Below are positions 1,281-20,196 of a stretch of 20,778 nt of DNA, piece after piece. Below the pieces are notes generated by a model. The model was given only the letters and a program-made list of their open reading frames with translations, had not been told where the DNA came from and ran no database searches. This stretch comes from a virus, in the IMG/VR virus record IMGVR_UViG_3300037264_003480, positions 1 to 20,778 of that record; one strand, written 5' to 3'. Made by a program: the position numbers and the translations under genes. The first letter of the stretch is position 1, and every line of letters starts with the position of its first letter.

Positions 1281-1578
1281 CTACAGGGACTATGGCTGGC
1301 ATTTCCTGGGGTTTTTCTCCCCCAGGTATCACCTCCCTAACTTTATCTCCTGGATGCTAGTCTGTAGTCTGGCAGATTATACTTGGTTTATAGGTATATT
1401 TGCCGTTATTGAGGATTTCTGCTACTTTCTTTTTCACCCGACCGATACCCTTGAGAAGGATGACTGGATCTGCCGTATGATGGGCTCTTTCTCAGTCTTA
1501 GGCCTCAGAATTCCCAATGCTTACCTTCTCGGGGGCGCCTTTTCCTACTTCCTTTACAAGATCCCATCATGGATATAG
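1186..1578 (+). CDS. Integral membrane protein, three predicted TM segments
   Basis: A 130-residue protein with a strong ribosome site (AGAGGGG) six bases before ATG 1186. Hydrophobic helices lie at roughly residues 9-24, 54-83 and 103-125. The second contains acidic residues within or beside the membrane (Asp64 and the pair Glu76-Asp77 in AVIEDFCYF), unusual for a simple anchor. The loop between helices 1 and 2 is rich in aromatics and His (YGWHFLGFFSPRYHLP). I do not recognise the family. The gene overlaps the following membrane-protein gene by 10 nt, so the two are probably translated together and may work as a pair. Possible roles are membrane enzyme, superinfection exclusion or lysis control, but none is demonstrated. 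Confidence 0.7.
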   Translation: MSTWIQANYNILILIGIAGLIGYVEQHVYRNNYRDYGWHFLGFFSPRYHLPNFISWMLVCSLADYTWFIGIFAVIEDFCYFLFHPTDTLEKDDWICRMMGSFSVLGLRIPNAYLLGGAFSYFLYKIPSWI

Positions 1579-1982
1579 GTCTGCATGTCATATTGCCTAC
1601 TCTAGCTGGTAAATGGGCCGGAATAACAAAGAAGTACCTTATAGCGATCGGAATTGGAGGGGCTACACCAGACCTTGTCTCAGGCCTGGAACACGTGCTG
1701 TTCTGGTCAGGTATCTGGGAACATAAATGGCTCCTCCGTAGTTATGCCCATTTCACCTACTCTCCCGATGCCTGGGCCATATTACTCCTTCTAGCCCCGC
1801 TATTCCTTCTCATTCCCAGATGGCTGGGGTTGGCATTTTATATAGGGTATGCCTTACATTTCTTTATGGACTATCTATGGCATGATCCGCTAGGTGGGTG
1901 GTATACCTGGGCAACGATCACTAACTACTCAATCTGGGGCTTATTAGTTATATATTATGTTTACCGTCTCCGTAAAGAGTAA
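1569..1982 (+). CDS. Membrane protein resembling DUF457/YdjM-type metal-dependent hydrolases
   Basis: A 137-residue protein with several hydrophobic segments (about 23-34, 69-83, 86-100 and 117-133). Polar residues of the kind that bind metal recur at segment ends: His6, Asp35 (ATPDL), His42, His52, His61 (RSYAHFTYSP), and His97-Asp101-His105 in ALHFFMDYLWHDPLGG. The last motif (H-x3-D followed by a Pro/Gly turn) and the RSYAH-SP segment resemble the YdjM/DUF457 family of membrane-bound metal-dependent hydrolases. I base this on motif resemblance only, and the family's classic HRGxTHS signature is not intact. No clear ribosome site precedes the ATG. It overlaps the preceding membrane-protein gene by 10 nt and the following TerS-like gene by 26 nt, so translational coupling is likely. 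Confidence 0.65.
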   Translation: MDIGLHVILPTLAGKWAGITKKYLIAIGIGGATPDLVSGLEHVLFWSGIWEHKWLLRSYAHFTYSPDAWAILLLLAPLFLLIPRWLGLAFYIGYALHFFMDYLWHDPLGGWYTWATITNYSIWGLLVIYYVYRLRKE

Positions 1983-4555: not shown

Positions 4556-4570
4556 TAGTATATTATACTA
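4556..4570. repeat. AT-rich palindrome overlapping the portal start
   Basis: The bases tagtat-att-atacta form a perfect 6-bp dyad ending on the first base of the portal start codon, in the only gap between the terminase and portal genes. The portal gene lacks a clear ribosome site here, so the element could affect translation or bind a regulator. AT-rich dyads of this size can also arise by chance. Confidence 0.3.
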
Positions 4571-6804
4571 TGAAGGTATTCTCGCTCTTTAGTGGCAAAG
4601 AAGAAGATAACACACAGAAGACTAGCGCTTACCTGCAAAATGAGGAAGGAGAGCTTTCATACAGACTCCTAGAACGGTATAATACCTCAAGCAGGGCTAA
4701 CTGGCTCGAGGATTTTGCCTCCAGTTCTAACTTCAGGGCTGGTTACCAGTGGACTCAGGATGAAGAGGCCGAGCTCAAAGAGGAGGGTCTGCCGCCGGTA
4801 GTTGTCAACGTCATTCATCCATCGGTAGATCAAATAAAGGCGGCCATGACCGCCAACAACCCGCAATTCTCAGTTACGGGTGCGGAGGGAAGCGACCATA
4901 AGGTAGCCTCCATCTTCTCCGATGTGTTATCGGATATCTGGCGAAGCTGCGACGGTAAATCACAAACCCGCCAGATGATAGATGATTATATCATCGGCGG
5001 CAATGGGATTTATCTGGCTTATGTCGATCCAACCGGAGAAAACGGCCAGTCAAAAGTAAAGTTTGCAGCAATAGACCCACGGGATGTTTGGGTTGATCCG
5101 GATACCAAGGATTATCTTTACCGTGATGCTGCCCATATCCTGATAGGAAAGATTCTCACCTCCGAGCAACTCCAGCATTATTATTCTCAGTATGCCGAAG
5201 CGTTCCCCAAAATGGAAGAGTGTCATACGAACTCTTTATCTTCTTTAGGAGGAGAGGTTCGCACTGACGATCCTCAACTGCCCGCTACTGATCCAGAGGC
5301 GGTAAAATACTGCGTGATTGATCGCTATAGTCGCATCAAACATGTGGTGCATATAGTTCGCAATCCAGTTGATGGCAGTGAGTGGGAAATGAATGCTGAG
5401 CAGTTTCAGACCTTTTTGGGATCGAAGTTTCTGTATGAGATTACCGCTAACTCTCTGCCACAGCTTATTACAGATTCCGTAAAATTACGAGAGGCAATGG
5501 GATATGTGGAGAAGTTTGGTAATACGTTCCACTATGCGATTGATCCTAATGATAGGATGGGTAAGCCGCTTATTGTACCGGGAGAAGAAAACCCTGAGCT
5601 AGATTCTCAGCAAGGCATGCAGACGATCCCAGGATCAACCGTTAGACTCAATCCTGTTCCTGTTGCCGAGTTGATTAAGAAGCGGGTATTGGATTACGAA
5701 GAATTCGGAGATAACCGAATTAAGCGGGTATTCTCTATAGGAAGATTTGCGCTCTACACGGAAATTATGCCGGTAGAAGATCATGTAATAGTTCCGTGTA
5801 TTAATGGTTTTGGACGCTCTCCACATGGCCGCTCAGATGTAAAGATCGTTAGACCTCTACAGGTATACATAAATAAGCTGCGGGCTCTTATTCTTGTTCA
5901 TGCGGCTAACTCTGCTGGAGTAAAGCTTGCAATTCAACGTGGCTCTGCCGATGTGAACGAACTGCGGAAGCAGTGGAGAAGGGCTGGCACGGCGGTTATT
6001 GAGGTAGATATGGAGTTGGGAGCGCCAGTCCAGGTGGCTCCACCGCCATTGCCTAATGAGCTTTATCTGGATGAAGCTCGTATGAGGAGCGATATCCAGG
6101 AGATCCTGGGGACATACACCCTTTCTGCTGGTAACCCGGATGAGGCCCCGACCACCTATAAGGGCACGGTAGCTATTGATGAATATGGCCAGCGTAGGAT
6201 TAAGAATAAAAAAGACGAGGTAGAGGCAACTCTTACGCAACTTGCGTATATTCTTATCCGCCTTATTCAGGCTAACTATACAGAGCCAAGAATTATACGG
6301 CTGATTAGACCGAATAACACGACCTATTCGGCCAGGGTTAACTACCTTGAAGATCAGTCTGCTTTTGCTCCTAAGATTAATGATTTATCTGTTGGCCGGT
6401 ACGATGTTATCGTTGTCTCCGGCTCTATGCTGCCCGTTAATAGGTGGGCACGGTTTGAATATTATATGGCGCTTTACGAGAAGGGCGTCATAGATCGCCT
6501 TGAACTCTTAAAGCATGCTGAAATTGTCGATCCACAGGCTGTGGCTGAGAGAATGAGCGAGATAGAGATTCTACGCCAACAGCTTAATACTGCCATTGAC
6601 AAGATCAAGGATCTGGAGGGCGATCTGCAAACCGCAACCAGAGAAAGTATGCATGATCGTAAGCGGGTGGAAGTTGAAAAGTTTAAGTCGAGCATTTCTG
6701 GGCTCCGCCAGAAAGCTGAAGCCGCAACGGAAATATACACCAAACGGCTGGCCGACGAAGTTGCTCTTGCTGCAACCTCTGTTAAAGAGGATGGCAAAGA
6801 GTAA
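4570..6804 (+). CDS. Portal protein, P22-like
   Basis: A 744-residue protein that should form the dodecameric ring at one capsid vertex through which DNA enters and leaves. Its position directly after TerL and its length (P22 portal is about 725 residues) fit. The N-terminal third resembles P22-type portals: VNVIHPSVDQIKAAMTANNP (80-99), the segment around IIGGNGIYLAYVDP (141-154), and IDPRDVWVDPDTKD (168-181), where this family typically has a D-P-R/D-V-W turn. The last 90 residues are strongly charged and helical (IEILRQQLNTAIDKIKDLEG), a coiled coil consistent with a C-terminal barrel. The start lies 23 nt after the terL stop without a strong ribosome site. Confidence in portal identity is high, in the P22 subgroup moderate. 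Confidence 0.85.
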   Translation: MKVFSLFSGKEEDNTQKTSAYLQNEEGELSYRLLERYNTSSRANWLEDFASSSNFRAGYQWTQDEEAELKEEGLPPVVVNVIHPSVDQIKAAMTANNPQFSVTGAEGSDHKVASIFSDVLSDIWRSCDGKSQTRQMIDDYIIGGNGIYLAYVDPTGENGQSKVKFAAIDPRDVWVDPDTKDYLYRDAAHILIGKILTSEQLQHYYSQYAEAFPKMEECHTNSLSSLGGEVRTDDPQLPATDPEAVKYCVIDRYSRIKHVVHIVRNPVDGSEWEMNAEQFQTFLGSKFLYEITANSLPQLITDSVKLREAMGYVEKFGNTFHYAIDPNDRMGKPLIVPGEENPELDSQQGMQTIPGSTVRLNPVPVAELIKKRVLDYEEFGDNRIKRVFSIGRFALYTEIMPVEDHVIVPCINGFGRSPHGRSDVKIVRPLQVYINKLRALILVHAANSAGVKLAIQRGSADVNELRKQWRRAGTAVIEVDMELGAPVQVAPPPLPNELYLDEARMRSDIQEILGTYTLSAGNPDEAPTTYKGTVAIDEYGQRRIKNKKDEVEATLTQLAYILIRLIQANYTEPRIIRLIRPNNTTYSARVNYLEDQSAFAPKINDLSVGRYDVIVVSGSMLPVNRWARFEYYMALYEKGVIDRLELLKHAEIVDPQAVAERMSEIEILRQQLNTAIDKIKDLEGDLQTATRESMHDRKRVEVEKFKSSISGLRQKAEAATEIYTKRLADEVALAATSVKEDGKE

Positions 6805-7742: not shown

Positions 7743-9035
7743 ATGCCTGCTAAAAATTTAGGCGGAAGTGGCGTTCTCTATACGGATCGCCGGAACTTTT
7801 ATCTTTCGCCCAACGTAACGAAAGAGCTGTGGACGAGCGTTGCTCCGTTTACCACAATTATAGCCAATAGGCCGATTGTGACCGGACTCGCAGACCCACT
7901 GTTCAAAATGTTTGAACACCGAGATCCCTGGATTAAACAACAGGTAGCGGTTAACGATTCTTCTCCCCCGAACATCCTTGATGATGATACGGGAACCGTT
8001 GTAACGGTGGATAGTATTGTTGGCCTTGCCAGTCCCGTTGATTCCAGCTATGTCAACCTTGTCTTTGAGATATATGATTCGACTCTTGTAACTAAAAGGG
8101 GGACAGTGGTATGCACGGCGATCTCCGGTGCCGATTTAACAGTAAAGCCTCTTTATGCGGCTGCCATCCAGACAGCAGACAACGATGTTCTGCTCTGTCG
8201 GGGTAATGCCCAGGGAGAGGGATCGTCGGCTCCCGAAGCATGGGGCGATGAATTGCGGGTGGTCTGGGGCTCAACTCAGATTATGGAAACACCCGTGGAT
8301 ATCACCGGTACCCTGCTCAGGGCGGCTCTTCGCGGTTACTCCAACGAGCTTGCACGCCTTCGCATGATGAAGAACAAAGAGTTCAAAATGCAGAGGGAGA
8401 ATGGACATCTCTTTGGTGAATCGATCATCGGGACCAATCTCGATGTCGATGCTGCGGATACGTTCAGCGATGCGTTCCGAACCGATGCTAACGGAAAGAA
8501 GATCCGAACCAGCATGGGTCTTGTGACGGCCATTGAGCGTTACGGCAAGACTTCTGGCGATACTCAAAATCGTTTCACCATCACGGCAGCTTCCTATAAC
8601 TATGGGAACTTTGTCGATGATATGGAAAAGGTTTTTCAGTATTATCCCGAAGACGGTATTAAGTATGCACTCTGCGGTCCTGGGGCCATGAGCTACTGGT
8701 CCAAGATCTCGACCTCTGGATTTGCGGATAATAGTGGCTGGAAGGTGCAGCTGTCCGACTCTTTTAAGGATAAGCTGGGCTTTGCGATCCGCATGCTTGA
8801 AACTCCTCACGGAATACTTGCGCTTGTTCTGACCCCCGCTTTGCGAGGACCGCGGAATAAGAGCATGCTTGTTATCAGCGACTCTAATCTCAATATTGTC
8901 GAGTATGAGCCTCCGATGTACAAGACGAACATCAAAACTGACAATGCTTACAAGGGTGTCAAAGATGTTTATTTCTCTGATGAGGGTCTGGGCATGACGC
9001 TGATCGAAAGTCACCATATATTTAATGTCGTCTAA
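7743..9035 (+). CDS. Major capsid protein, HK97-fold, SU10-like
   Basis: A 430-residue protein following the scaffold, of the right length for a major capsid protein. The segment from about residue 175 (LRVVWGSTQIMETPVDITGT) followed by an amphipathic helix with many charged residues (ELARLRMMKNKEFKMQREN) and GHLFGE resembles the SU10-type family (DUF5309), where a T/E-x-V-x-V-T/S-G-T strand precedes the long spine helix. The family assignment is by pattern memory, so moderate. No signal or delta-domain cleavage site is visible. It has a strong ribosome site (AAGGGA) before ATG 7743. A GC hairpin lies 18 nt after its stop and may stabilise the transcript end, as expected for the most abundant virion protein. 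Confidence 0.85.
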   Translation: MPAKNLGGSGVLYTDRRNFYLSPNVTKELWTSVAPFTTIIANRPIVTGLADPLFKMFEHRDPWIKQQVAVNDSSPPNILDDDTGTVVTVDSIVGLASPVDSSYVNLVFEIYDSTLVTKRGTVVCTAISGADLTVKPLYAAAIQTADNDVLLCRGNAQGEGSSAPEAWGDELRVVWGSTQIMETPVDITGTLLRAALRGYSNELARLRMMKNKEFKMQRENGHLFGESIIGTNLDVDAADTFSDAFRTDANGKKIRTSMGLVTAIERYGKTSGDTQNRFTITAASYNYGNFVDDMEKVFQYYPEDGIKYALCGPGAMSYWSKISTSGFADNSGWKVQLSDSFKDKLGFAIRMLETPHGILALVLTPALRGPRNKSMLVISDSNLNIVEYEPPMYKTNIKTDNAYKGVKDVYFSDEGLGMTLIESHHIFNVV

Positions 9036-9667: not shown

Positions 9668-10117
9668 ATGAAATTCAAGTTAATTCTTTTCGCTTTACTT
9701 TGCCTGCCCCTTCTGGCGGAAGCACAGTTCTCTGGTTTGAGTTCTAACGATAGCTTGTATGTTAAAACATTGGCCGGAACGAAAATAGTAGATAAGGCTT
9801 TTGTAGACGCCACACTGGATACCTCGCAGACCGTCTTTACCGGCCATCACAAGACCTTTTATGTCTTATTGCAGAGCAAGGACTCTGCCAGGATATTTTT
9901 GAATTATCAACTGTCTCTGGATGGCGTCACCTTTTCTCCGACTGTTCAGGGGGACTCTCTTAATACAACGAGTAACACCGGCAACGTTAAGGCGGTGGAT
10001 TATACCGCCAGGTTTTTAGGAACCCCATTTATACGAATGGTGTACGACGTACAGACAACCGGACTTGGTTTTTCCTCGGCCACCTATACGGCCCTTTTTG
10101 TTAGGAAGATCTTTTAA
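9668..10117 (+). CDS. Small exported protein with Sec signal peptide
   Basis: A 149-residue protein with a strong ribosome site (AAGGAG) before ATG 9668. The first 20 residues form a textbook signal peptide: basic start (MKFK), hydrophobic core (LILFALLCLPLL) and a cleavage site AEA|Q. The mature part, about 130 residues, is beta-rich without motifs I recognise (HKTFYVLLQSKDSARIF, NYQLSLDGVTFSPTVQGDS). It is presumably translocated to the periplasm or beyond. That is odd for a gene between capsid and adaptor genes, because virions assemble in the cytoplasm. It could be an exported relative of a decoration protein, a host-surface modifier or an exclusion factor. Its stop overlaps the next start by one base (TAATG), tying it to the adaptor operon. 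Confidence 0.7.
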   Translation: MKFKLILFALLCLPLLAEAQFSGLSSNDSLYVKTLAGTKIVDKAFVDATLDTSQTVFTGHHKTFYVLLQSKDSARIFLNYQLSLDGVTFSPTVQGDSLNTTSNTGNVKAVDYTARFLGTPFIRMVYDVQTTGLGFSSATYTALFVRKIF

Positions 10118-11079
10118 TGGCCACTCTTCACCAAAGGGTAGAAGATTATATAGGAACATTTTCAGACACTGAGGCAGTAGATAATTGGCTTACGGAGTCT
10201 GCGGCAATGATCCTACGAAGGCTTCCAGAAACCGAAGCTCGTCTTTATGCTACCGAGGCCGACGTTCTTGATGCTGGGATATCCCTTACTCAGAAGTTGC
10301 CTCTTTATGCCACAAGGGATAGTCGTGGCTGTATAATGACAGGTGGGGAGAATGAAGGAAGAGTAGCTGATCCTGCCTCATTTTTCTATGCAACCAGTTG
10401 GGCTCCAGTAGCCATCATTAATAATAATCTCCTAAAGATTTATCCTTCAGGGGGCACGAAGAAGCTTACTGCCATTATTTATCCCACGGTAGGCGGAGCT
10501 TCTACTACCGTTCCCAATATCCCATCCTGGGGTGAAGGTGTATGTATTCTCTATTCCGCTATTCGGGCCAGACAAAAACAGATTACCGATCTTACGAGTG
10601 AGCTTCCTACTCCCCCTACGGCTCCAGGCTTTACATATACTGATGCCGTGGGCGCTCAAATATTATCGAGTGCGCTTTATAGCATTGACTTAACGACCGA
10701 CTTTACTCAGGCGCTAACCTATATTCAGACCGAGGAAGATATTGAGCTGGCCAGAGGACACGTAGAAAAGATTCTTGCCAGGCTTCAAGAGTTCCAAAGA
10801 GAATCAGAAATTGAGTTCCAGAGAAATTTGGAGAATGCTAGGGCCTCTAGTGAGACGGACCGAGTAAATCGAATTAATCAACTCTCTCGACATGTTCAGG
10901 AGTATACAGCAGTACTGGAAAAGTATGCCAGAGATCTCCAACGAATAGTGCAGAAGATCGCTACATATCGAGTTGGCCTGGCTTCTATGACTGAGCAGTA
11001 TAATCTAATGCTGATAACCCATCTTGGCGTAGTGATGGGCCAGGGAAAGAGGGGGGAGGCTATAGATGACGCTGCTTAA
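10117..11079 (+). CDS. Neck/head-completion candidate with long coiled coil
   Basis: A 320-residue protein whose start overlaps the preceding stop. An AGGAAG ribosome site lies about ten bases upstream. The N-terminal part (about 1-130) resembles small phage connector-type proteins: a helix (VEDYIGTFSDTEAVDNWL), then RRLPETEARLYATEADVLD and a strand-rich part with LLKIYPSGGTKKLTAIIYP. Residues about 208-300 form a continuous charged helix (ELARGHVEKILARLQEFQRE), clearly coiled coil. Placed between head genes and a second adaptor-like gene, it probably forms part of the neck or an internal virion structure. I do not recognise a named family. The sequence does not show whether the coiled coil reaches into the tail or the capsid interior. 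Confidence 0.5.
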   Translation: MATLHQRVEDYIGTFSDTEAVDNWLTESAAMILRRLPETEARLYATEADVLDAGISLTQKLPLYATRDSRGCIMTGGENEGRVADPASFFYATSWAPVAIINNNLLKIYPSGGTKKLTAIIYPTVGGASTTVPNIPSWGEGVCILYSAIRARQKQITDLTSELPTPPTAPGFTYTDAVGAQILSSALYSIDLTTDFTQALTYIQTEEDIELARGHVEKILARLQEFQRESEIEFQRNLENARASSETDRVNRINQLSRHVQEYTAVLEKYARDLQRIVQKIATYRVGLASMTEQYNLMLITHLGVVMGQGKRGEAIDDAA

Positions 11080-11842
11080 TATGGTTGAGACCATTCAGAG
11101 CTCTCATCCCGGTAAGTTCCTTGCACGAATACAGTTTGATCTTAACGACGCCTTGAGAGTATTTTGCATAGAAACCCGCATCTTAGGCACGAGAGCAAAG
11201 GTAAATGCGGTTACTGATAAAGTCTCTGAAGACCTCGTTAAAAATATAACTCGATTTGCCCTGCCAGCAGACTTTCACGAGCTGGTTAAAGTAGATGAGC
11301 TATATAAAGACAATATGCTGATTAAGCAGGGCTACCTGGAAATCTTTGCATTCGATAATGCTTTAACAGAAATGTGGATGGATTATTCTGCATTGCCGAC
11401 ACTTTTAGTGTTTGAGGCCGACTCACCGGGTATGCCGGAGGAATTTCATAGGGCTCCGCTCTGTTCGGTAATGAAACAATATTATGCCGATGCAGGAGAC
11501 TTACCAAGGGCTCAGTACTGGAGTAAAGAATACTCTGATCTGTATAAGAGCGCCCTTCGCTATTCTAATACCAGGCCGTACAGACTTTTAAATACCTTAG
11601 GAGGTGCAAGCAAAGTGAAGCAAGCTTGGGCAAGGGGCGTTTCCCTGGTAGCCGGGAAAAATACCATTCCTACAAATTTAACATTTACTAATAATCTGTA
11701 CGCCTTAGTTTTTAATGGCAACGGGGTAGACGTACAGGCTACCGACCCCGTAACTGGTTTACCGGATAAAACAACCACGACGTTTGCCGTCTGGGCTGCA
11801 ATCGCAACTTCGCAGTTCGAATGGATAGCAAGCGGAAATTAA
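11066..11842 (+). CDS. Head-to-tail adaptor-like protein
   Basis: A 258-residue protein overlapping the previous gene by 14 nt with an excellent ribosome site (GGGGGGAGG) before ATG 11066. Its features recall phage adaptor proteins that sit under the portal: an N-terminal helix containing LARIQFDLNDALRVF, a TRFALPADFHELVKVDELY turn (about 72-90) like the 'yaLPaDf' motif of such proteins, and a helical pair near LCSVMKQYYADAGDLPRAQY (142-161) followed by KEYSDLYKSALRYSN. The C-terminal 70 residues are beta-rich and Thr/Ala-rich. SU10-type phages carry a comparable adaptor at this position. The family link is by motif memory and position. Confidence 0.55.
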   Translation: MTLLNMVETIQSSHPGKFLARIQFDLNDALRVFCIETRILGTRAKVNAVTDKVSEDLVKNITRFALPADFHELVKVDELYKDNMLIKQGYLEIFAFDNALTEMWMDYSALPTLLVFEADSPGMPEEFHRAPLCSVMKQYYADAGDLPRAQYWSKEYSDLYKSALRYSNTRPYRLLNTLGGASKVKQAWARGVSLVAGKNTIPTNLTFTNNLYALVFNGNGVDVQATDPVTGLPDKTTTTFAVWAAIATSQFEWIASGN

Positions 11843-11856
11843 CCATAGGAGAAACA

Positions 11857-12051
11857 ATGTTTAATCTTACTACAAAGAATACGACCGTTCTTGGCATTGC
11901 AATGATTATTACGGCTCTTTCGAGCGCAGCAGCCGCTGTCTTTGATGGAGAGCTGACTACCGAGGTGGATTTTGCGTCGCTTATTGCCGCCTTATCTGGT
12001 GGCGTTGCTTTAATGCGAGTTAAAGTAGAGCCTGTTCCGCCCACTGCCTAA
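11857..12051 (+). CDS. Holin candidate, two TM segments
   Basis: A 64-residue protein starting at ATG 11857, chosen over the in-frame ATG at 11821 because AGGAGA lies just before 11857 and 11821 lies inside the previous gene. It has two hydrophobic helices (TVLGIAMIITALSSAAAAVF, about residues 9-29, and FASLIAALSGGVALM, about 40-54) separated by a short acidic turn (DGELTTEVD) and a basic/proline-rich tail. This is the architecture of class II holins, which open the inner membrane at lysis time. Its stop overlaps the start of the peptidase gene by one base (TAATG), a typical holin-endolysin pair. Confidence 0.65.
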   Translation: MFNLTTKNTTVLGIAMIITALSSAAAAVFDGELTTEVDFASLIAALSGGVALMRVKVEPVPPTA

Positions 12052-12434
12052 TGGCGGGGTATTTGCTAAAGGAGGGAGTTCCTATTAAGGAACTTTCTCC
12101 CATAATGCTGAATGCTCTGGAAAGGCTTGCTCTTATCTGGCAAGCCTTCTTTCCGGACGTAGATCAAGAGATGGTGGTAACTTCCACCTACGAGGGACAT
12201 CGTGGGGATGGTGTCCATAAAATGACCAGCTTTCACTATGACAAGAAGGCGGCTGACTTGAGAAGCCGCCATGTTATACGGTCGCGTGCCAAGGAAAAGT
12301 TTTGCCCCGCTGCTCGTCTGTGTCTCGGGGAAGATTTTGACGTGGTTTACGAGACACATCCAATACATATTCATGTGGAATATGACCCAAAAGAAAATCA
12401 AACTTCCGGACCCGGAATACATTCCACTGTCTAA
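12051..12434 (+). CDS. Endolysin, M15-type zinc peptidase
   Basis: A 127-residue protein immediately after the holin candidate. It shows the metal-binding layout of M15-type (VanY/hedgehog-like) peptidases: Ser60-x-His62 and Asp69 (TSFHYDKKAAD) followed by His106-x-His108 near the end (HPIHIHVEYD). Arg51 in GHRGDG lies where family members often have an arginine. Such enzymes cut the peptide stem or cross-bridge of peptidoglycan. There is no signal peptide, so release would depend on a holin, and no separate cell-wall-binding domain. At 127 residues it is a minimal catalytic unit. No ribosome site is visible, so translation probably couples to the TAATG overlap. The last 53 nt overlap the next gene. 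Confidence 0.75.
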   Translation: MAGYLLKEGVPIKELSPIMLNALERLALIWQAFFPDVDQEMVVTSTYEGHRGDGVHKMTSFHYDKKAADLRSRHVIRSRAKEKFCPAARLCLGEDFDVVYETHPIHIHVEYDPKENQTSGPGIHSTV

Positions 12435-12723
12435 GCCCAAGAAGAGAGAACCCCCCAGGCCTCTTTCGGGAGTTCCATTAGATGAGGTAGTCAAGGCAAG
12501 ACGAGAGGTAGACGAGAATTTACGAAACAGTGCAGCCCTTTCTACGGAGGAAGAGGAAGAGTTGTTGGATGATGAAATTGAGCGTCTGTCTAAACACCAA
12601 GAACTTACCGACGTTAGCGCCGGGAAGGTATCTACTCGTCGAGAGGCCGAGCTATCTCAAAGAACCGGAGTATGGAAATTGATAGGGTTTGTTATCGACT
12701 TTCTTAGAAAGTTTATAATTTAA
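12382..12723 (+). CDS. Lysis-cassette protein of unknown function with C-terminal hydrophobic helix
   Basis: The frame is open from 12271, but translation from ATG 12382 (113 residues) removes a long overlap with the peptidase and a non-natural N-terminus, so I prefer it. ATG 12373 is another option. The protein is proline- and lysine-rich at first (KPKKREPPRP), then strongly charged and helical (ALSTEEEEELLDDEIERLSK), and ends with a hydrophobic/amphipathic helix (GVWKLIGFVIDFLRKF, 95-110). Position beside holin and endolysin suggests a lysis role. Spanins normally anchor at the N-terminus, so a spanin assignment would be unsupported. It could also be a small virion component. The stop overlaps the nozzle gene by one base (TAATG). 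Confidence 0.5.
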   Translation: MTQKKIKLPDPEYIPLSKPKKREPPRPLSGVPLDEVVKARREVDENLRNSAALSTEEEEELLDDEIERLSKHQELTDVSAGKVSTRREAELSQRTGVWKLIGFVIDFLRKFII

Positions 12724-15700
12724 TGCCTAGGGAAGTTATAGAGCTTGCGACGTTCGGTGGAATGGTTTCTAATCCTGATCTTCAGGATATTCCTATTAAT
12801 GCGGCCGATTGGCGTGAGGATGTAGACGCTGATTCCGCCGACGGTATTCTGCGTGGTCGCAAGGGAGATACTACCGTTGCTACGACTTATGGAAAGACCG
12901 CGATAGCGGCCCGACTTATTTATCGGGATATTTCTCTTAGAGACCTGGTCTACCTGAACCCGGTTGACCAGCGTATTGAGGCCGTCAAGGATCTGTACGG
13001 CACTCCAGTATTAGTAGGTAACGGTGGAAGCGATCCGATTGTCGTCGCTGAGAAGGCCGCTGCTTCAGTTCTGAATAATGTCGTTCACTACGGACTTGGA
13101 AATCAGGCGCCTAAATGGGCTGGGTACATTAATCATGATCGCTTTGGCATTAACACGGCAGATAAAACTCTGTTTAGGGTACTCGATGATACCGTAACTA
13201 CCGGTAATGCAACACCCTATTTTCACAAGGTGTTGGCCGATAGTCTTTACTACTATGGCATTCAGCTTGATGGTATCTATATTTATAAGATCGACAAGAC
13301 TACGGGGTTGTTTGTTTCTAAGTCAATAGCCTTTGTGAAGACCAGGGCATTCTGTCATGCAGAGTCTGGCTACGCTTATCTTTTTGACCAGGCTGGTAGT
13401 GACGGGATACTCTATAAAATTCAGCTCTCTGATCTTACAATTACCATTACAAGAACTCTTTCCGCCTTTACCGGAATACAATCTACGTTCACTCCGTATA
13501 TAAGCGATATACTTGCTACCACTAATCGTGTGTGGTTTGCCTTTCATGGCCCGCTCTTAAAAGAGTTTCCCGATGGTTCCAATGGGACAAATTGGGTGTA
13601 TACCATTCCACGAACAGAGGCGGATTCATCCGGTGGCTCTAGCACTAATACCAATCGGACTCCGTTAATTACGGGCGGCAGTATGGCAGTTGGACGCTTT
13701 ATAAATCTTCGTATATTTTCAGATACGACTCGCACCCTGGTATCTAGTGTGACGAAGCAATTAGTACAGACATTCCCGGTTTCCCTTGTAAAGCTTTCAG
13801 GAACCAGCGTTGCATGGCTTGCTCGTTATTCAGGCGGGTACTCTACTTATGGAGATATTGGTGGGCTGGCCTTTACTGAATATCATAATCATATTCGAGA
13901 AAATGATAGTGGCGGAATATATCAGGCTGTTCGAGGAGACGTGATCGCCTTTAATATTGGCGAGAGTGATGCCTCCGCAACTCTTCAGCCCTTTCATAGC
14001 ATATACGATGTAAGTGGTCCGTCCTCTATTTATGGGTGGTGTGGCGAAGATACGTCGTTGGCTACATCCGACATAGACATGTTTATTGTTGTAAGTAAAA
14101 ATATTCTACAACATCATGCAGCGTTTAATAATCCAGTGCCGACAGTTGGCGTCTCCGCCGATCAGCGTGCTGCGACCAAGTATTCTGGGACTGTTGGTGG
14201 GGCAAACTTTGCCGCGGTAACCGTTGATCTTTCTCCGGCTACCGACGCGGTGATTCTTTCCAGGCAGGCCGGGAGCGCTCCAGGAATTGAAAAAATTAAC
14301 GTAGACTGGACAGCCAACATTACCAAGCCCGCCGCTGCTCACGAAGGATCTAATATTATTATATCTTCAACAGTCGTTACCTCTACAACTGCATTTACGG
14401 ATAACAGATCCTACTTTTATCGTTTTAGTTTTACTTTTAATTTTACAGAAGAGAGCCCGCTGGGATTACTGGCATATCGTATAGATCGTGCTGCTGGAGT
14501 TAAAGATGGGGCAAGAGTATCGGTGATTATCCGAGACACCGCCCTTCTTAGTTCCAGGGTGACCGCTGTAAATGTTTATAGGGCTAGTGGTACATACCAA
14601 GGGAATACGCCTGATGGCTTCTATCGTCGGGTCAAAACTATTTCCACCACAGATCAGTCTTTTGTAGCTAGCGGAATAACATCAATGTCGCACTCTTTTG
14701 ATGATTTAGAAGAGAGTATTGGGGCAGCTTTTGAAGCCAGAGCCGGGTATAGTGAAACATTGGAAGACGTAGGGATGCAGTATACATTATCTGCGGCCCT
14801 AAATGGATCGCTGTTTATTGGCAAGTGCTATCATACGGAGCTTCCAGATGCCCTAAGGTATATTTTTAAGAGCAAGTCTTTTCGTTATTCTACGTTTGAT
14901 CGCATTAACGAATACCTAATTCTTCCTGCTATTCCTACTGCTATGGCTGGGTGGAATGGAAGACTGTATGTATGCACGAAGACCGACCTTTACCGTATTA
15001 ATCCCGACGGACTTTTTATCGAGGACGTTTTTCATGGAGTAGGAGCTATAGATCAAGGCTGTATTGTGGTAACTCATGCCGGCATGTTTATATACGATCA
15101 GGAGAGTATCTACTTACACGACGGGAAATCTCTTAGCAATATAGGCTACCCCATTCAAAGACGCAGTAACTTAGTGTCTGTGCCTGGATCATTTGCTCTT
15201 GAGAATATTTCTCATACACAGTATAATCCCATTGGTAGTTATTTCCAAGACCAAGGAAGCGTATGTTATCTGGTAAGTACCAGTTCTACTGGTAATTATC
15301 TTTTAGTCTTTAATATACGACGGGGGGAATGGGGAGTATGGAAGTTGGCCGACAATCCAGGAACGTCGAGGGTAAATATATTTGGGGGTATAAATGGCGA
15401 GTTGTATTTTTCAGATACTGCCGCTCTGCTTAAGATAGCCGACTCAGGAACGCGAAAGATATTTAACTGGTACTCCAAGGTATTTACCGGCGACCAGACT
15501 CATGACAATAAGAAGTTTTATATTATGCGTCCTAAGGCTAAAGGAGAGGACGCTTCCTCTGTTCTAAATAAAACTTATTCAGCAGACGATGCTGCTTTTG
15601 TAGCGACTGCCGCCGGAGACCTGATTAATTCAGCCGATAGAAAAAAGAACCGGATTCAGCTGCGACTCAATACGTCGGGCGGAACGGCCGGCAATGTTAG

Positions 15701-15749
15701 CGTGCAGTCTCTATCGTTAGTTTTCCGTTCCCTATTGGGGGAGAGATAA
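12723..15749 (+). CDS. Large tail protein, probable tail nozzle/tubular protein
   Basis: The largest protein here, 1008 residues, starting in a TAATG overlap. It opens with VIELATFGGMVSNPDLQDIP and GILRGRKGD, as do many phage tail-tube/nozzle proteins that begin with a conserved segment docking on the adaptor. The body is beta-rich with repeated blade-like units, and the C-terminal third has typical propeller wording: LYVCTKTDLYRINPDG (about 748-763), MFIYDQESIYLHDG and VFNIRRGEWGVWKL (about 862-875). In short-tailed phages such proteins form the hexameric nozzle that closes the tail. Position just before the fibre genes supports this. I see no signal peptide or membrane segment. A siphovirus-type tail is unlikely, as no tape measure or tube gene is present. 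Confidence 0.65.
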   Translation: MPREVIELATFGGMVSNPDLQDIPINAADWREDVDADSADGILRGRKGDTTVATTYGKTAIAARLIYRDISLRDLVYLNPVDQRIEAVKDLYGTPVLVGNGGSDPIVVAEKAAASVLNNVVHYGLGNQAPKWAGYINHDRFGINTADKTLFRVLDDTVTTGNATPYFHKVLADSLYYYGIQLDGIYIYKIDKTTGLFVSKSIAFVKTRAFCHAESGYAYLFDQAGSDGILYKIQLSDLTITITRTLSAFTGIQSTFTPYISDILATTNRVWFAFHGPLLKEFPDGSNGTNWVYTIPRTEADSSGGSSTNTNRTPLITGGSMAVGRFINLRIFSDTTRTLVSSVTKQLVQTFPVSLVKLSGTSVAWLARYSGGYSTYGDIGGLAFTEYHNHIRENDSGGIYQAVRGDVIAFNIGESDASATLQPFHSIYDVSGPSSIYGWCGEDTSLATSDIDMFIVVSKNILQHHAAFNNPVPTVGVSADQRAATKYSGTVGGANFAAVTVDLSPATDAVILSRQAGSAPGIEKINVDWTANITKPAAAHEGSNIIISSTVVTSTTAFTDNRSYFYRFSFTFNFTEESPLGLLAYRIDRAAGVKDGARVSVIIRDTALLSSRVTAVNVYRASGTYQGNTPDGFYRRVKTISTTDQSFVASGITSMSHSFDDLEESIGAAFEARAGYSETLEDVGMQYTLSAALNGSLFIGKCYHTELPDALRYIFKSKSFRYSTFDRINEYLILPAIPTAMAGWNGRLYVCTKTDLYRINPDGLFIEDVFHGVGAIDQGCIVVTHAGMFIYDQESIYLHDGKSLSNIGYPIQRRSNLVSVPGSFALENISHTQYNPIGSYFQDQGSVCYLVSTSSTGNYLLVFNIRRGEWGVWKLADNPGTSRVNIFGGINGELYFSDTAALLKIADSGTRKIFNWYSKVFTGDQTHDNKKFYIMRPKAKGEDASSVLNKTYSADDAAFVATAAGDLINSADRKKNRIQLRLNTSGGTAGNVSVQSLSLVFRSLLGER

Positions 15750-16405
15750 TGCCGCTGATTAGAGGTCGCCGCCTCCCACAGCTGGGAGATCCCGCTTTGG
15801 AGCGGGCATTCCAATCTCTATATGATGATATTAATAGTATATTAGAGGGAATACAAAGACCGTCTCATGTTGGTAACCCCAGGGGAGATGAGGGCAAGCC
15901 TGGCGATATTCGCTTGACAATGGATCCAGGTGGGCAGTTCTTCTTGCAGGCTCGGTATAAGGAGGGATGGGTTTCGTCGGCTAAGAATGCGTTTCAATTC
16001 ATGCTGAACGAGAACGCTAGACCTGAAATAGTTATTACGGGTGGTGGGCTGACTTCTACCCCTGGGAAGCCCGTGGTTTTTGGGCTTTCTGAAACTGGCG
16101 TAATCCCTGGTAGCTATACTCGTACAAATCTAACGGTTGATGCTTTTGGGCGTATTACGACAGCAGCAAATGGCGGGGGGTCAGGGCAGATTACTTCGGC
16201 GGCTGGAGCGGGGATCGTTGCGGTTACATTGACTGGTCAGCCCAATGCAAACTATATTCCAGATGGCTTTCTTTTAACGTCTACAGGAGAAAAGTCCCTT
16301 GTAATTCCACAGATTCCCCCATTAACCGACTCGAGAACAGCTGGTGGATTTAATATGAGAGTATTTGAAGCTGGAACGCTTTACACGTGGGTGCTATCGA
16401 TATGA
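15749..16405 (+). CDS. Fibre-base or short tail-fibre protein
   Basis: A 218-residue protein starting in a TAATG overlap after a strong ribosome site (GGGGGAGAG). It begins with a helical docking region (LGDPALERAFQSLYDDINSI), then a segment GNPRGDEGKPGDIRLTMDPG that recalls collagen-like or fibre linkers. Residues about 112-144 contain GVIPGSYTRTNLTVDAFGRI, a turn-strand motif recurrent in phage tail fibres. The C-terminus is beta-rich. It probably attaches fibres to the nozzle. It has no signal peptide, unlike the two fibre genes that follow. The stop overlaps the next gene's start (ATGA, 16402). Confidence 0.65.
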   Translation: MPLIRGRRLPQLGDPALERAFQSLYDDINSILEGIQRPSHVGNPRGDEGKPGDIRLTMDPGGQFFLQARYKEGWVSSAKNAFQFMLNENARPEIVITGGGLTSTPGKPVVFGLSETGVIPGSYTRTNLTVDAFGRITTAANGGGSGQITSAAGAGIVAVTLTGQPNANYIPDGFLLTSTGEKSLVIPQIPPLTDSRTAGGFNMRVFEAGTLYTWVLSI

Positions 16406-18513
16406 GGGTAACCGTTATATTGTTATTTCTCTTGGCGACAGGCCCTGCGTTTTCACAGACAAGGGCCCCCCTAGCTAAACACGATACGGTGAGCTCTTTT
16501 ACTTCAGCCAGTATGCTTTTGCTCTATGATACGATTCGTGTTGCTGGTTATATTCAAGGAGATTCAGTCGGTTCCTCCGTTACGCCACCCTACGGTAAAG
16601 GAAATTTGATAATTAAGGGAATGAGTGGAATTTACTATCGTTATCCGAACGGCGTCGAACGTAACCTCGATTCGGCAACGGCAGGTGGTGCGGGTGAGGC
16701 AAATACTGCGTCGAACCTCGGCGGAGGTCTCGCTAATTTTGACAGTAAGAGCGGAGTGGATTTAAGGTTCAATTCTTTTGAGGCAGCCGACTTTAATCTT
16801 GCTGCCAACCTTCTCTCCATAGACGATGCGAATTGGGCCAGTCAAACAGAATTAAATCTAAAGTCTCCCCTTGCGTCTCCGACATTTACGGGGACTGTCA
16901 TAATTCCAACGCCGTTTACACTTGGAGCCGTCTCAGTGGTTCCGACGGGCACGGAATTGAATTATGTAGATGGAGTCACATCTGCGATTCAAACACAATT
17001 AGATGCAAAGGTTCCTACTACGCGGACACTGACGATCAACGGTACGACGAATGAAGTAACATCGTCCGCAGGAAGCCAGGACTTATCGGCTAATAGAACC
17101 TGGACACTGGGGCTGCCAGATTATGTAACCGTTACCGAGGATTTAACGATTTCAGATACACTTACCTTTTCTAATGCCGGGCTAAGTGGTTTTGCTGGAA
17201 TCATCAATAGTAATGTACTATCGTCTACAAGAAATTGGAACCTCCCCAATGCCAACGGAACATTCGCCGTGTCGGCAACAAGCCCGCTTGCGCTCGATGC
17301 TACGTCTGGCGCGCTTACTTTAACAACCGTTCCAGTCACCAAAGGCGGAACAAATAGTACGAATTACACAGCCGGAAGCATTATTTTTGCAGGTGCCAGC
17401 GGAACGTCGTTGACCGAAGATAATACAAATTTATTTTATGACGATGCACTTAATCGACTTGGTCTTGGCACGGCTTCTCCGGTTAGTGATTTTCATAGTT
17501 CCTCTGCGTCGCCAGTAATATCATTTACTTCGACGAACAATGTGTCGGGCGTTCGATTTAATGTTACCGCAACGGCAACCACCGCTTTTCGTTGGCAATA
17601 TGCGGGCGTAACTTATTTGACCATGATGCCAAGCGGTAATTTTGGTGTGGGTGATGGTACTCCTGCGTCATTATTTACAGTTGGGTCTGGTGACTTGTTT
17701 CAAGTGGGATCGGATGGTGATATTGACAGGATTAAAGACCTTCCGTTTTCTTGGTATTCTACGCGAACCGGTAGCGGCTTCATGTTTGATGATGGGGCTG
17801 GGAATATAAGTTTGAATACACCGGGCAATCAATCCATGTCGAGTAGTGTAGAGTTGTTTGAGGAATGGATTTCGGCCACCGCCACCGGCAATCTCGGGTG
17901 GGCGGCGGCCACGACAGGCAGCGGTGCATTCATCCCAAGCATTCCAGTCAACTATCCAAGTACTGCAGATTCAAATGCTTTCGGAATCCTCTCATTTGTC
18001 TGTGGGACTGCGTCAAGTGGTCGCTCAAATGCTTATCTCAACACGAACAACATTTCATTCGAGGGTGGGGCGACTGAGTTTGAGATTCGTATGAAAACCC
18101 CCGCCGATGTAACTGCGGCGAGGGACTATGCGATGGTTCTTGGGATGGGGGATAGTTTACTCTCGATTACGCACCGTGATGCCGTGGCCTTTCAGTGGGT
18201 GGCCGATAGTAGCTCTCAGCAGTGGCGCGGTATGACATCTAATAACGGAACCAAGAGTTATGTTACTGGAGGTAGTGCGATTACAGCAAGTACGTGGTAT
18301 AGGCTGCGGGCCGAGGTGAATGCTTTGGGAACTTCAGTTACGTTTTACGTTAACGGGTCTTCTATTGGAACTATAACTACCAACATTCCGTCCGATGTTA
18401 CAGCGAGGATGGTTTCACCCCACATCAAGATAGTGCGCTATTTAGCGGGAACGACGCAGACGATGTATGTTGATTATTTTTATCTAAAAAAATCTTTTTC
18501 TCCTACGAGATAG
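16402..18513 (+). CDS. Tail-fibre-like protein with signal peptide and lectin-like C-terminus
   Basis: A 703-residue protein. I chose ATG 16402 over 16387 because 16402 makes an ATGA overlap with the previous stop and puts a perfect signal peptide at the N-terminus: MRVTVILLFLLATGPAFS|Q. The mature protein shows fibre repeats: SPLASPTFTGTV (155-166), DGVTSAIQTQLDAK (190-203), LGLGTASPVSDFH (about 353-365) and MPSGNFGVGDGTP. Residues about 476-700 form a concanavalin/LamG-like beta-sandwich, with the tell-tale STWYRLRAEVNALG and VTFYVNGSSIG (about 630-655), a likely glycan-binding domain. Such a protein should bind host surface sugars. The Sec signal at the start is unexpected for a fibre assembled in the cytoplasm, so it may act outside the cell. 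Confidence 0.7.
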   Translation: MRVTVILLFLLATGPAFSQTRAPLAKHDTVSSFTSASMLLLYDTIRVAGYIQGDSVGSSVTPPYGKGNLIIKGMSGIYYRYPNGVERNLDSATAGGAGEANTASNLGGGLANFDSKSGVDLRFNSFEAADFNLAANLLSIDDANWASQTELNLKSPLASPTFTGTVIIPTPFTLGAVSVVPTGTELNYVDGVTSAIQTQLDAKVPTTRTLTINGTTNEVTSSAGSQDLSANRTWTLGLPDYVTVTEDLTISDTLTFSNAGLSGFAGIINSNVLSSTRNWNLPNANGTFAVSATSPLALDATSGALTLTTVPVTKGGTNSTNYTAGSIIFAGASGTSLTEDNTNLFYDDALNRLGLGTASPVSDFHSSSASPVISFTSTNNVSGVRFNVTATATTAFRWQYAGVTYLTMMPSGNFGVGDGTPASLFTVGSGDLFQVGSDGDIDRIKDLPFSWYSTRTGSGFMFDDGAGNISLNTPGNQSMSSSVELFEEWISATATGNLGWAAATTGSGAFIPSIPVNYPSTADSNAFGILSFVCGTASSGRSNAYLNTNNISFEGGATEFEIRMKTPADVTAARDYAMVLGMGDSLLSITHRDAVAFQWVADSSSQQWRGMTSNNGTKSYVTGGSAITASTWYRLRAEVNALGTSVTFYVNGSSIGTITTNIPSDVTARMVSPHIKIVRYLAGTTQTMYVDYFYLKKSFSPTR

Positions 18514-18522
18514 GGTGTCACG

Positions 18523-20196
18523 ATGAGACAGATATATATAATTGGGATCATCTTGTTGTATGTTACTTGTAACGCTCAGGAAGTACCATACGGAACATCT
18601 CTAACAGGGAGCGATACATTATGGTTGAATTATCTCAAGGTGACAAACACTGCTGACGACGCTGATGCGCCGACAATTCTATTGGATAACGTTGCCGGAG
18701 GCAGGCGGTATGATCTCAAAGCGTTAGGCAGTGGACATCTTGAGTGGACAGACTATAACGGCGGATCGCCGAAATATCTCTTTGGGTTCGATGGACTTAA
18801 TGCAAAGGTTTATACAACAGAGACAACTCTTGGTCTTGGTATCGCCCGCACGGACGCTATCGCTAACCCCCTGAGCGTAAAGGGAGCCGTAAGCATCGGC
18901 GCGTCGTATATCAATATTGCCGCTCCTGCCAATGGACTTATTTCTGAGGGGACTATCGCTATTGGTACGTCCGCACCTGCCGCCTCATCCCAGCTACAGG
19001 TAAGCGATGGCACAGCTATCCTTGCCGGGCTTATCGGGGCGTCTGATAAGTGGTTATTTACCGTAAATAATACCGCTCCGGGACTCGTCGGGATCGTAGC
19101 AAGTAACACGGTCAGTCATAGAATGGTATTCAAGGGTACGCGGGCACGCGGGACAACTGATGTTCCGACAAAATTATCGGCAGATGACGATGTCGTGTCG
19201 CTCTTGGGTGTTATATGGGACAGCTCAACAGGAAGGGCGACAGGAGAAATTCTATTCGAAGCTGACGGCGCATCGTTACCAAGCGTCGCTCCGCAAAGGA
19301 TTTCATTCCTTACAGGGGCGACCACGTCCCGCACAGAACGTATGCGAATCACGAGCGGTGGTCTTGTCGGTATTGGCGTTACACCTACGACAATATTGCA
19401 TGTGAAAGGCGCAGACAATACAACAGTCCAGACTATCGAGATTGCGGCGACACAAGCCAATGTAACGGCGGCGGACATATTCATGGATTTCCGCAGTTCA
19501 TCCGGGAGCGAAGGCACCATTGCAGGGACGGCTGTGGCCGGCGTGATAGCATTCAATACATTTACTGGGGCGCATTATGCACAAAAACAGAATGAAGCCG
19601 AAAATATGATAACAGGGATGATTGTTTCTGCGACGGGGAATGTCATGCCGGGCGGGGATTATCTTCCTATGATTACCAAATCGACGGGTCGAAACGATAA
19701 AGCCGTCTACGGAGTTTATGCCTCAAAGATTGCCGATGGTTACACGACGACCGAGATCGACTCACTGCGAGGATTGAAACGATTGCATGATTCTGTGCAA
19801 GTGATTTATGACTCACTCCAAATCAAAATCAACGGGGGCGATACGCTGATTCAGCAAATCAGCGTGCCACCGATACCCTCATTCAAAGGGCATACGCTGG
19901 ATTACGCGAAAGGACATCCTGCAAAAGATTTGCATCAGGTGTTCGCCGTCGGCACGGGAGTCATTCTCGTTACCGACGCAGGCGGGAATATAGCGGTGGG
20001 GGATTTTATAGCATCCAGTCCAACGAGAGGGCTTGGGGAGCGACAGACTATCGGCGGATTAGGGGTGACATCGGATCCGGTTGAATATGGTTACACGGCA
20101 GCAAAGGCAACGGTGAATGTCGATTTCGCCACAGTCCCCGTGCATCCACAACTTGGCGTGAAGGTGAAAATGATTCCCTGTACCTATGCGTTTTAG
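18523..20196 (+). CDS. Second signal-peptide fibre/adhesin-like protein
   Basis: A 557-residue protein with AGGGTG upstream of ATG 18523. It starts with a signal peptide (MRQIYIIGIILLYVTCNA|Q). Cys16 is in a poor lipobox (YVTC), so a lipoprotein is possible but less likely. Features: VGIGVTPTTILHVKG (about 281-295), a repeat style common in bacterial and phage fibre proteins; FNTFTGAHYAQ (about 344) with a G-x-H motif; a coiled coil (RGLKRLHDSVQVIYDSLQIK, about 415-434); and a C-terminal domain with NIAVGDFIASSPTRGLGE and a terminal IPCTYAF. This C-terminus resembles domains ending fibre-like proteins of marine phages and large DNA viruses (GDxI-SS, then AK-x-V, then CTY), a recall-based match. 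Codon use looks GC-richer than in neighbouring genes, suggesting a separate origin. Confidence 0.65.
   Translation: MRQIYIIGIILLYVTCNAQEVPYGTSLTGSDTLWLNYLKVTNTADDADAPTILLDNVAGGRRYDLKALGSGHLEWTDYNGGSPKYLFGFDGLNAKVYTTETTLGLGIARTDAIANPLSVKGAVSIGASYINIAAPANGLISEGTIAIGTSAPAASSQLQVSDGTAILAGLIGASDKWLFTVNNTAPGLVGIVASNTVSHRMVFKGTRARGTTDVPTKLSADDDVVSLLGVIWDSSTGRATGEILFEADGASLPSVAPQRISFLTGATTSRTERMRITSGGLVGIGVTPTTILHVKGADNTTVQTIEIAATQANVTAADIFMDFRSSSGSEGTIAGTAVAGVIAFNTFTGAHYAQKQNEAENMITGMIVSATGNVMPGGDYLPMITKSTGRNDKAVYGVYASKIADGYTTTEIDSLRGLKRLHDSVQVIYDSLQIKINGGDTLIQQISVPPIPSFKGHTLDYAKGHPAKDLHQVFAVGTGVILVTDAGGNIAVGDFIASSPTRGLGERQTIGGLGVTSDPVEYGYTAAKATVNVDFATVPVHPQLGVKVKMIPCTYAF

What the first reader, a model, noticed from the sequence alone, without database searches (positions are those of the whole stretch)
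9668..20196. Three Sec signal peptides on proteins of the phage structural module
The 149-aa protein (9668), the 703-aa fibre (16402) and the 557-aa fibre (18523) each begin with a basic start, hydrophobic core and small-residue cleavage site before Gln (AEA|Q, AFS|Q, CNA|Q), each with a normal start. Tail fibres are normally assembled in the cytoplasm and are not Sec substrates. Established knowledge says signal peptides direct export. The inference is that this phage exports adhesins or decoration proteins during infection: to coat or mask the host surface, to block superinfection, or to load onto virions only after release. Three independent cases in one genome argue against chance and suggest an extracytoplasmic fibre system that I do not know to be described.
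Basis: partly seen in the sequence, partly recalled or inferred. Interest (0 to 1): 0.82.

Follow-up and report, generated by a model that had tools for sequence, protein, structure and literature searches.

The report
Sec-exported tail-fibre proteins of tailed phages
This virus puts bacterial export tags on three proteins of its structural gene block, two of them fibres; the same tags sit on proteins found in purified particles of cultured marine phages, which suggests, but does not yet prove, that some tailed phages pass part of their particle through the host's export machinery before it joins the rest.

Summary
Genes 9668, 16402 and 18523 start with classical Sec/SPI signal peptides cleaved before Gln (AEA|Q, AFS|Q, CNA|Q), the Bacteroidetes 'Q-rule'. 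No other long gene in the window does, and 0 of 590 ORFs in 80 contigs carrying a related portal do. A second phage (L082 contig) repeats the pattern with four clear cases, two beside its capsid gene. Its single 1006-aa fibre matches the N-half of the 703-aa and the C-half of the 557-aa window fibre, so both pieces carry their own signal peptide.

The trait is wider than one genome. In Cellulophaga phages phi10:1, phi18:3, phiSM and phi39:1, ten proteins with such N-termini are annotated in GenBank as virion proteins by MS/MS. There the peptide stays identical through 6-7 synonymous changes while the protein's tip is replaced. A homologous spike without signal peptide is a virion protein too.

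Best reading: these adhesins are exported by Sec, trimmed and folded in the periplasm, and joined to cytoplasm-assembled particles at lysis. Signal peptides, selection on them and virion presence (in Cellulophaga phages) are supported; export and post-lysis joining are inferred. I found no published description in the open library searched.

The parts
9668..10117 (+). 149-aa protein with Sec/SPI signal peptide (MKFKLILFALLCLPLLAEA|Q), between capsid/cement genes and tail genes; mature part orphan
   Evidence: ORF and N-terminus; no homologue in viral contigs or phages; fold model pLDDT 39, unusable. L082's contig has signal-peptide proteins of 157 and 114 aa just after its capsid gene, but BLASTP finds no similarity between the 149- and 157-aa proteins
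9668..9724 (+). signal peptide of the 149-aa protein (19 aa, AEA|Q)
   Evidence: translation; AAGGAG 6 nt upstream of the ATG
15749..16405 (+). 218-aa tail protein without signal peptide, weak tail-fibre PHROG match; its stop overlaps the start of the 703-aa fibre (ATGA); candidate cytoplasmic docking partner (inference)
   Evidence: a 126-aa gene without signal peptide lies at the same place in L082, after a 979-aa ORF in the nozzle-gene position and before the fibre
16402..18513 (+). 703-aa fibre with signal peptide; C-terminal SO2946-like domain (PF22237)
   Evidence: residues 5-365 align to the L082 fibre through the signal peptide, E 3e-14
16402..16455 (+). signal peptide of the 703-aa fibre (18 aa, AFS|Q)
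18523..20196 (+). 557-aa fibre with signal peptide; residues 187-300 resemble Bdellovibrio MAT fibre 8oml; C-terminal 268 aa 65-66% identical to the L082 fibre
18523..18576 (+). signal peptide of the 557-aa fibre (18 aa, CNA|Q)
12723..15749 (+). 1008-aa protein at the nozzle-gene position, no signal peptide
   Evidence: weak PHROG virion structural match; not alignable to the L082 979-aa protein
4570..6804 (+). P22-like portal (PF16510), anchor of the structural module
   Evidence: 209 relatives in viral contigs, 80 kept
7743..9035 (+). SU10-type major capsid protein (PF17236)

Best explanation
The phage sends its adhesive fibres, and one small protein near the capsid genes, through the host's own Sec translocon. 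Host signal peptidase I cuts them before Gln; in a Q-rule host the new N-terminal Gln would be cyclised to pyroglutamate. The mature fibres fold and trimerise in the periplasm, apart from the DNA-filled heads and nozzles assembling in the cytoplasm, and dock on the particles when lysis mixes the two compartments. Supported: signal peptides in this phage and in L082, independent signal peptides on fibre halves, selection on the signal peptide and virion presence in Cellulophaga phages. Inferred: actual export, cleavage, post-lysis docking, and that this phage behaves like the Cellulophaga phages. Likely benefit (inferred): keeps sugar-binding or sugar-cutting proteins out of the cytoplasm, or lets spare fibres clear receptors on the dying cell.
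For: Three Q-rule signal peptides among 20 window ORFs, 0 of 590 in portal relatives. L082's contig: clear Q-rule signal peptides on 157-aa, 114-aa, 1449-aa (GH18) and 1006-aa fibre proteins of its structural module. The 703-aa and L082 fibres align through the signal peptide, and the 557-aa fibre, whose own N-terminus does not align, matches that fibre's C-terminal part, so the second piece has a separate signal peptide. GenBank MS/MS virion proteins with such N-termini: phi10:1 gp091-094, phi18:3 gp085-087, phiSM gp08, phi39:1 gp25-26 (gp25 misses my rule but reads MRKLILFFGLIFCLEMAA|Q). Selection: phi10:1 or phi13:2 against phi18:3 gp086-type, residues 1-20 identical with 6-7 synonymous and 0 nonsynonymous changes, while residues 131+ align at about 20%. 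Virion-bound homologue without signal peptide: phi14:2 gp097. Q-rule: PMC5837995, mean Q-value 71% in Bacteroidetes.
Against: No experiment on this phage; host unknown. Window genes often have Shine-Dalgarno-like leaders, unlike the phi18:3 genes examined, so a typical Bacteroidota host is uncertain, though Ignavibacterium album has a Q-value of 77%. MS/MS notes do not give N-terminal peptides, and secreted proteins can contaminate or stick to virion preparations. The window fibres have no detectable homologue among the Cellulophaga proteins, so the comparison is by analogy. Several Bacteroidota phages (crAss001, phiST, 11b, P12024S, B124-14) show no such structural proteins in the stretches read.
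Confidence: 0.6

Rival explanations
1. The exported proteins work at the host surface or in the medium during infection (coating, receptor masking or destruction, superinfection block, capsule degradation), and their presence in virion preparations is secondary.
For: P. gingivalis Nixviridae phages encode five Q-rule proteins of unknown function that the authors interpret as envelope-modifying (PMC10367356). L082 exports a GH18-domain protein. Bdellovibrio MAT fibres, which the 557-aa fibre resembles, are signal-peptide-bearing surface adhesins.
Against: Ten such proteins in four cultured phages are listed as virion proteins by MS/MS; a homologue without signal peptide is a virion protein; the N-terminal module is conserved while the tip is swapped, as in virion-attached spikes.
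Confidence: 0.22
2. The N-termini are hydrophobic anchors that stay uncleaved and act in assembly at the membrane or in the virion.
For: Hydrophobic helices can anchor; cleavage is unmeasured here.
Against: Short cores with small -3/-1 residues and Gln at +1 in all three window proteins and in L082 are the hallmark of SPI substrates in Q-rule hosts.
Confidence: 0.1
3. The fibre genes were picked up from secreted host proteins and the signal peptides are unselected leftovers.
For: Cellular exported proteins with the same repeats exist (Bdellovibrio MATs).
Against: In Cellulophaga phages the peptide is kept under synonymous-only change and reused in front of different tips. The window's fibre pieces each carry one; L082 has four clear cases. 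The 557-aa C-terminal domain also occurs in an ordinary phage fibre without signal peptide (L084).
Confidence: 0.06

Closest known systems
Bacteroidetes Q-rule SPI substrates (PMC5837995)
   Same: Signal peptide cut before Gln in all three proteins
   Different: These are phage structural-module proteins; host phylum of this phage not shown
Virion proteins of Cellulophaga phages phi10:1, phi18:3, phiSM, phi39:1
   Same: Large fibre- or spike-type proteins beside tail or portal genes with Q-rule signal peptides; annotated as found in virions by MS/MS
   Different: No detectable sequence homology to the window fibres; cultured Cellulophaga baltica hosts; signal peptides not remarked on in the annotation
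Mosaic adhesive trimer (MAT) fibres of Bdellovibrio (8ond, 8oml; PMC10769870)
   Same: Phage-fibre-like repeats; family reported to carry signal peptides and to be surface displayed; weak sequence match to the 557-aa fibre
   Different: Cellular predator proteins; the conserved ~130-aa domain after the signal peptide was not tested in the window proteins
P. gingivalis Nixviridae Q-rule proteins (PMC10367356)
   Same: Phage genes with Q-rule signal peptides
   Different: Unknown function, not assigned to fibres or virions
Filamentous phage coat proteins pIII/pVIII (own knowledge)
   Same: Virion proteins exported by Sec with cleaved signal peptides
   Different: Particles are assembled at the membrane by extrusion without lysis; not tailed phages

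Membership tests
Sec/SPI signal peptide | positive n-region, hydrophobic core, small residues at -3/-1 | tested here: met
   rule scan; for 9668 only after allowing one charged residue in the c-region
Sec/SPI signal peptide | not Tat (RR) and not lipoprotein (lipobox) | tested here: met
   inspection of the N-termini; 18523 has YVTC, which departs from [LVI][ASTVI][GAS]C at two positions
Sec/SPI signal peptide | cleaved and exported in the cell | not testable with these tools
   needs N-terminal peptides or fusion assays
Bacteroidetes Q-rule substrates | Gln at +1 | tested here: met
   3 of 3; L082 4 of 4 clear cases in its structural module
Bacteroidetes Q-rule substrates | host in Bacteroidetes or another high-Q lineage | tested here: inconclusive
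   no host link; portal relatives only in a Flavobacteriales MAG and a Prochlorococcus single-cell record; SD-like leaders in many window genes
Tail fibre / virion protein | homology to fibre domains | tested here: met
   703-aa: PF22237 and shared fibre repeats with L082; 557-aa: C-terminal domain shared with L082 and L084 fibres. Not met for the 149-aa protein
Tail fibre / virion protein | presence in virions | not testable with these tools
   only shown, by annotation, for the Cellulophaga proteins
Bdellovibrio MAT superfamily | signal peptide plus trimeric-fibre repeats | tested here: met
   557-aa to 8oml E 5e-5; its C-terminal region to 8ond E 7e-5
Bdellovibrio MAT superfamily | conserved ~130-aa beta-rich domain right after the signal peptide | not tested
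   MAT N-terminal sequences not compared; the PDB matches cover C-terminal constructs

The most novel reading that the evidence does not exclude
Two-compartment assembly of a tailed phage: heads and nozzles form in the cytoplasm while fibres (and perhaps a small capsid-proximal protein) are exported by Sec, matured in the periplasm and fitted to particles only at lysis, as a recurrent strategy among phages of Bacteroidota and relatives.
Probability: 0.45. Interest if true: 0.9.

Novelty: new variant of a known kind. Interest (0 to 1): 0.74.

Why it matters
Tailed phages are taught to assemble wholly in the cytoplasm. If virion adhesins are Sec substrates, part of the particle is built in another compartment under host signal peptidase and glutaminyl cyclase control. 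That would bear on how receptor-binding proteins of Bacteroidota phages should be expressed (mature form) and annotated, and makes the assembly question testable in cultured Cellulophaga phages with existing virion proteomics. Signal-peptide-bearing tail proteins may at present be misread as host genes or morons.

Tried and rejected
Homologue searches for the 149-aa, 703-aa and 557-aa proteins in viral contigs and phages gave nothing, or L082 only for the 557-aa protein, plus a distant C-terminal match of the 703-aa protein in Pseudanabaena phage Pan5. Structure models of the 149-aa protein and of the fibre C-domain were too poor to use (pLDDT 39 and 37), so no fold search was made. The 149-aa protein and L082's 157-aa protein are not detectably homologous; shared position only. 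Host identification by portal relatives gave a Flavobacteriales MAG and a Prochlorococcus single-cell record, neither with signal-peptide genes in the piece, so the host stays open. A genome-contig scan with the fibre C-domain found nothing. Lipoprotein and Tat alternatives rejected by motif. Alternative starts that would avoid the signal peptide rejected for 9668 and 18523. Literature: no paper on exported tailed-phage fibres found in the open-licence library; subscription papers are not covered.

Full report
Observation. The window is an IMG/VR virus record of 20,778 bp. Its gene order is that of a short-tailed phage: TerL 3017, P22-like portal 4570, SU10-type capsid 7743, a weak Bbp16-like cement protein 9118, adaptor-like 11066, a 1008-aa protein at the nozzle position 12723, and the fibres. 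Proteins 9668, 16402 and 18523 begin with Sec/SPI-type signal peptides that end before Gln. No other long gene in the window has such an N-terminus. In 80 contigs sharing the portal family, 0 of 590 plus-strand ORFs of 100 aa or more pass the same rule, against 3 of 20 here (p=3e-5). The rule is mine, not SignalP, and I relaxed it once after its first version missed the AEA|Q site of 9668. The control contigs are mostly short, so many do not reach their own fibre genes; the comparison speaks for structural genes in general rather than fibres alone.

A second phage. The only viral contig with a close relative of the 557-aa fibre is IMGVR_UViG_3300025326_000085 (L082; 66% identity over the C-terminal 275 aa). 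Its portal and capsid sequences look different, though I did not compare them formally. Its structural module carries Q-rule signal peptides on a 157-aa and a 114-aa protein next to the capsid gene, on a 1449-aa protein with GH18 and TIG domains, and on a 1006-aa fibre; a 390-aa protein has a weaker one. The 1006-aa fibre aligns with the window's 703-aa fibre from inside the signal peptide to residue 365 (E 3e-14) and with the window's 557-aa fibre over its C-terminal part. Thus the two window fibres correspond to two parts of one L082 fibre, and each has its own signal peptide. The same C-terminal domain occurs in L084 on an ordinary fibre without signal peptide. The L082 fibre start is not a standard ATG: ATT or CTG at 7859/7862 overlaps or abuts the preceding stop, with GGGAG upstream; the upstream GTG/TTG starts give a longer n-region but keep the same cleavage site.

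Cultured phages. Reading Bacteroidota phage records, I found Q-rule signal peptides on proteins that the depositors annotate as virion proteins from MS/MS: phi10:1 gp091, gp092, gp093, gp094; phi18:3 gp085, gp086, gp087; phiSM gp08; phi39:1 gp25 and gp26. gp25 of phi39:1 fails my rule and is included by eye (MRKLILFFGLIFCLEMAA|Q). Relatives in phi19:3, phi46:3, phi13:2 and Ingeline_1 carry them too. Homologous spikes of phi17:2 and phi14:2 lack them, and phi14:2 gp097 is an MS/MS virion protein. For the gp086-type spike, residues 1-20 are identical between phi10:1 (or phi13:2) and phi18:3 with 6-7 synonymous and no nonsynonymous codon changes, while the part beyond residue 130 is hardly alignable. 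The export signal is therefore kept by selection, in proteins that end in the particle according to the annotation. This is not universal: the stretches read of crAss001, phiST, 11b, P12024S and B124-14 show none on structural proteins. I looked mainly at Cellulophaga phages, chosen because their records carry MS/MS notes, so no frequency across phages can be quoted. No sequence homology links these proteins to the window fibres.

Mechanism. The most economical reading is export by Sec, cleavage by SPI before Gln, folding in the periplasm and docking on cytoplasm-made particles at lysis. The start of the 703-aa fibre overlaps the stop of a 218-aa tail protein without signal peptide (ATGA), and L082 has a similar order, which would suit translational coupling to a cytoplasmic docking partner; this is inference. 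Export, cleavage and the timing of docking are not shown by anything here. MS/MS detection does not prove stoichiometric assembly, and a surface role during infection (rival 1) fits the signal peptides equally well.

Host. The Q-rule points to Bacteroidota or another lineage with high Q-values; PMC5837995 gives a mean of 71% for Bacteroidetes and 77% for Ignavibacterium album. Many window genes have Shine-Dalgarno-like leaders, which the phi18:3 genes examined lack, so the host is left open.

Known context. Q-rule proteins of unknown function were reported in P. gingivalis phages (PMC10367356). Bdellovibrio MAT fibres are phage-fibre-like proteins with signal peptides, displayed on the predator surface (PMC10769870), and the 557-aa fibre has a weak sequence match to two of them. 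I found no description of Sec-exported virion fibres of tailed phages in the open-licence library, which does not cover most subscription journals.

Verdict. A real and recurrent feature; interpretation partly supported; new variant of a known kind, with a clear experimental route in cultured phages.

Noticed in passing
L084:4433-6237: Capsid gene interrupted: its N-part runs in frame into a LAGLIDADG endonuclease domain (PF03161, E 4e-26) and the likely C-part is a separate ORF, suggesting an intron or intein.
   Followed up: partly
L100:12295-16641: 1449-aa protein with a Q-rule signal peptide, GH18 and TIG domains in a phage structural module; its C-terminal end resembles that of the window's 703-aa fibre by eye, without a significant BLASTP score.
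   Followed up: partly
L106:45363-45806: Flavobacterium phage FCL-2 encodes a 147-aa protein with a Q-rule signal peptide followed by a fibre-type repeat (VGIATTTPTETLDVNG).
   Followed up: no
L117:281-1552: Fibre with a 35% match to the anchor region of the phi10:1 gp093-type spike but no signal peptide; another case of related domains with and without it.
   Followed up: partly
window 12051-12434: 127-aa protein with a sub-threshold Hedgehog-signalling-domain match (PF01085), a fold related to M15-type peptidases (own knowledge); possible endolysin.
   Followed up: no
window 1569-1982: Multi-pass membrane protein with a sub-threshold match to zinc-dependent phospholipase C (PF00882), upstream of the terminase genes.
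   Followed up: no
L103 and L102: Portal relatives of the window in a Flavobacteriales MAG contig and a Prochlorococcus single-cell contig with the same gene order; the host of this phage group is unresolved.
   Followed up: partly
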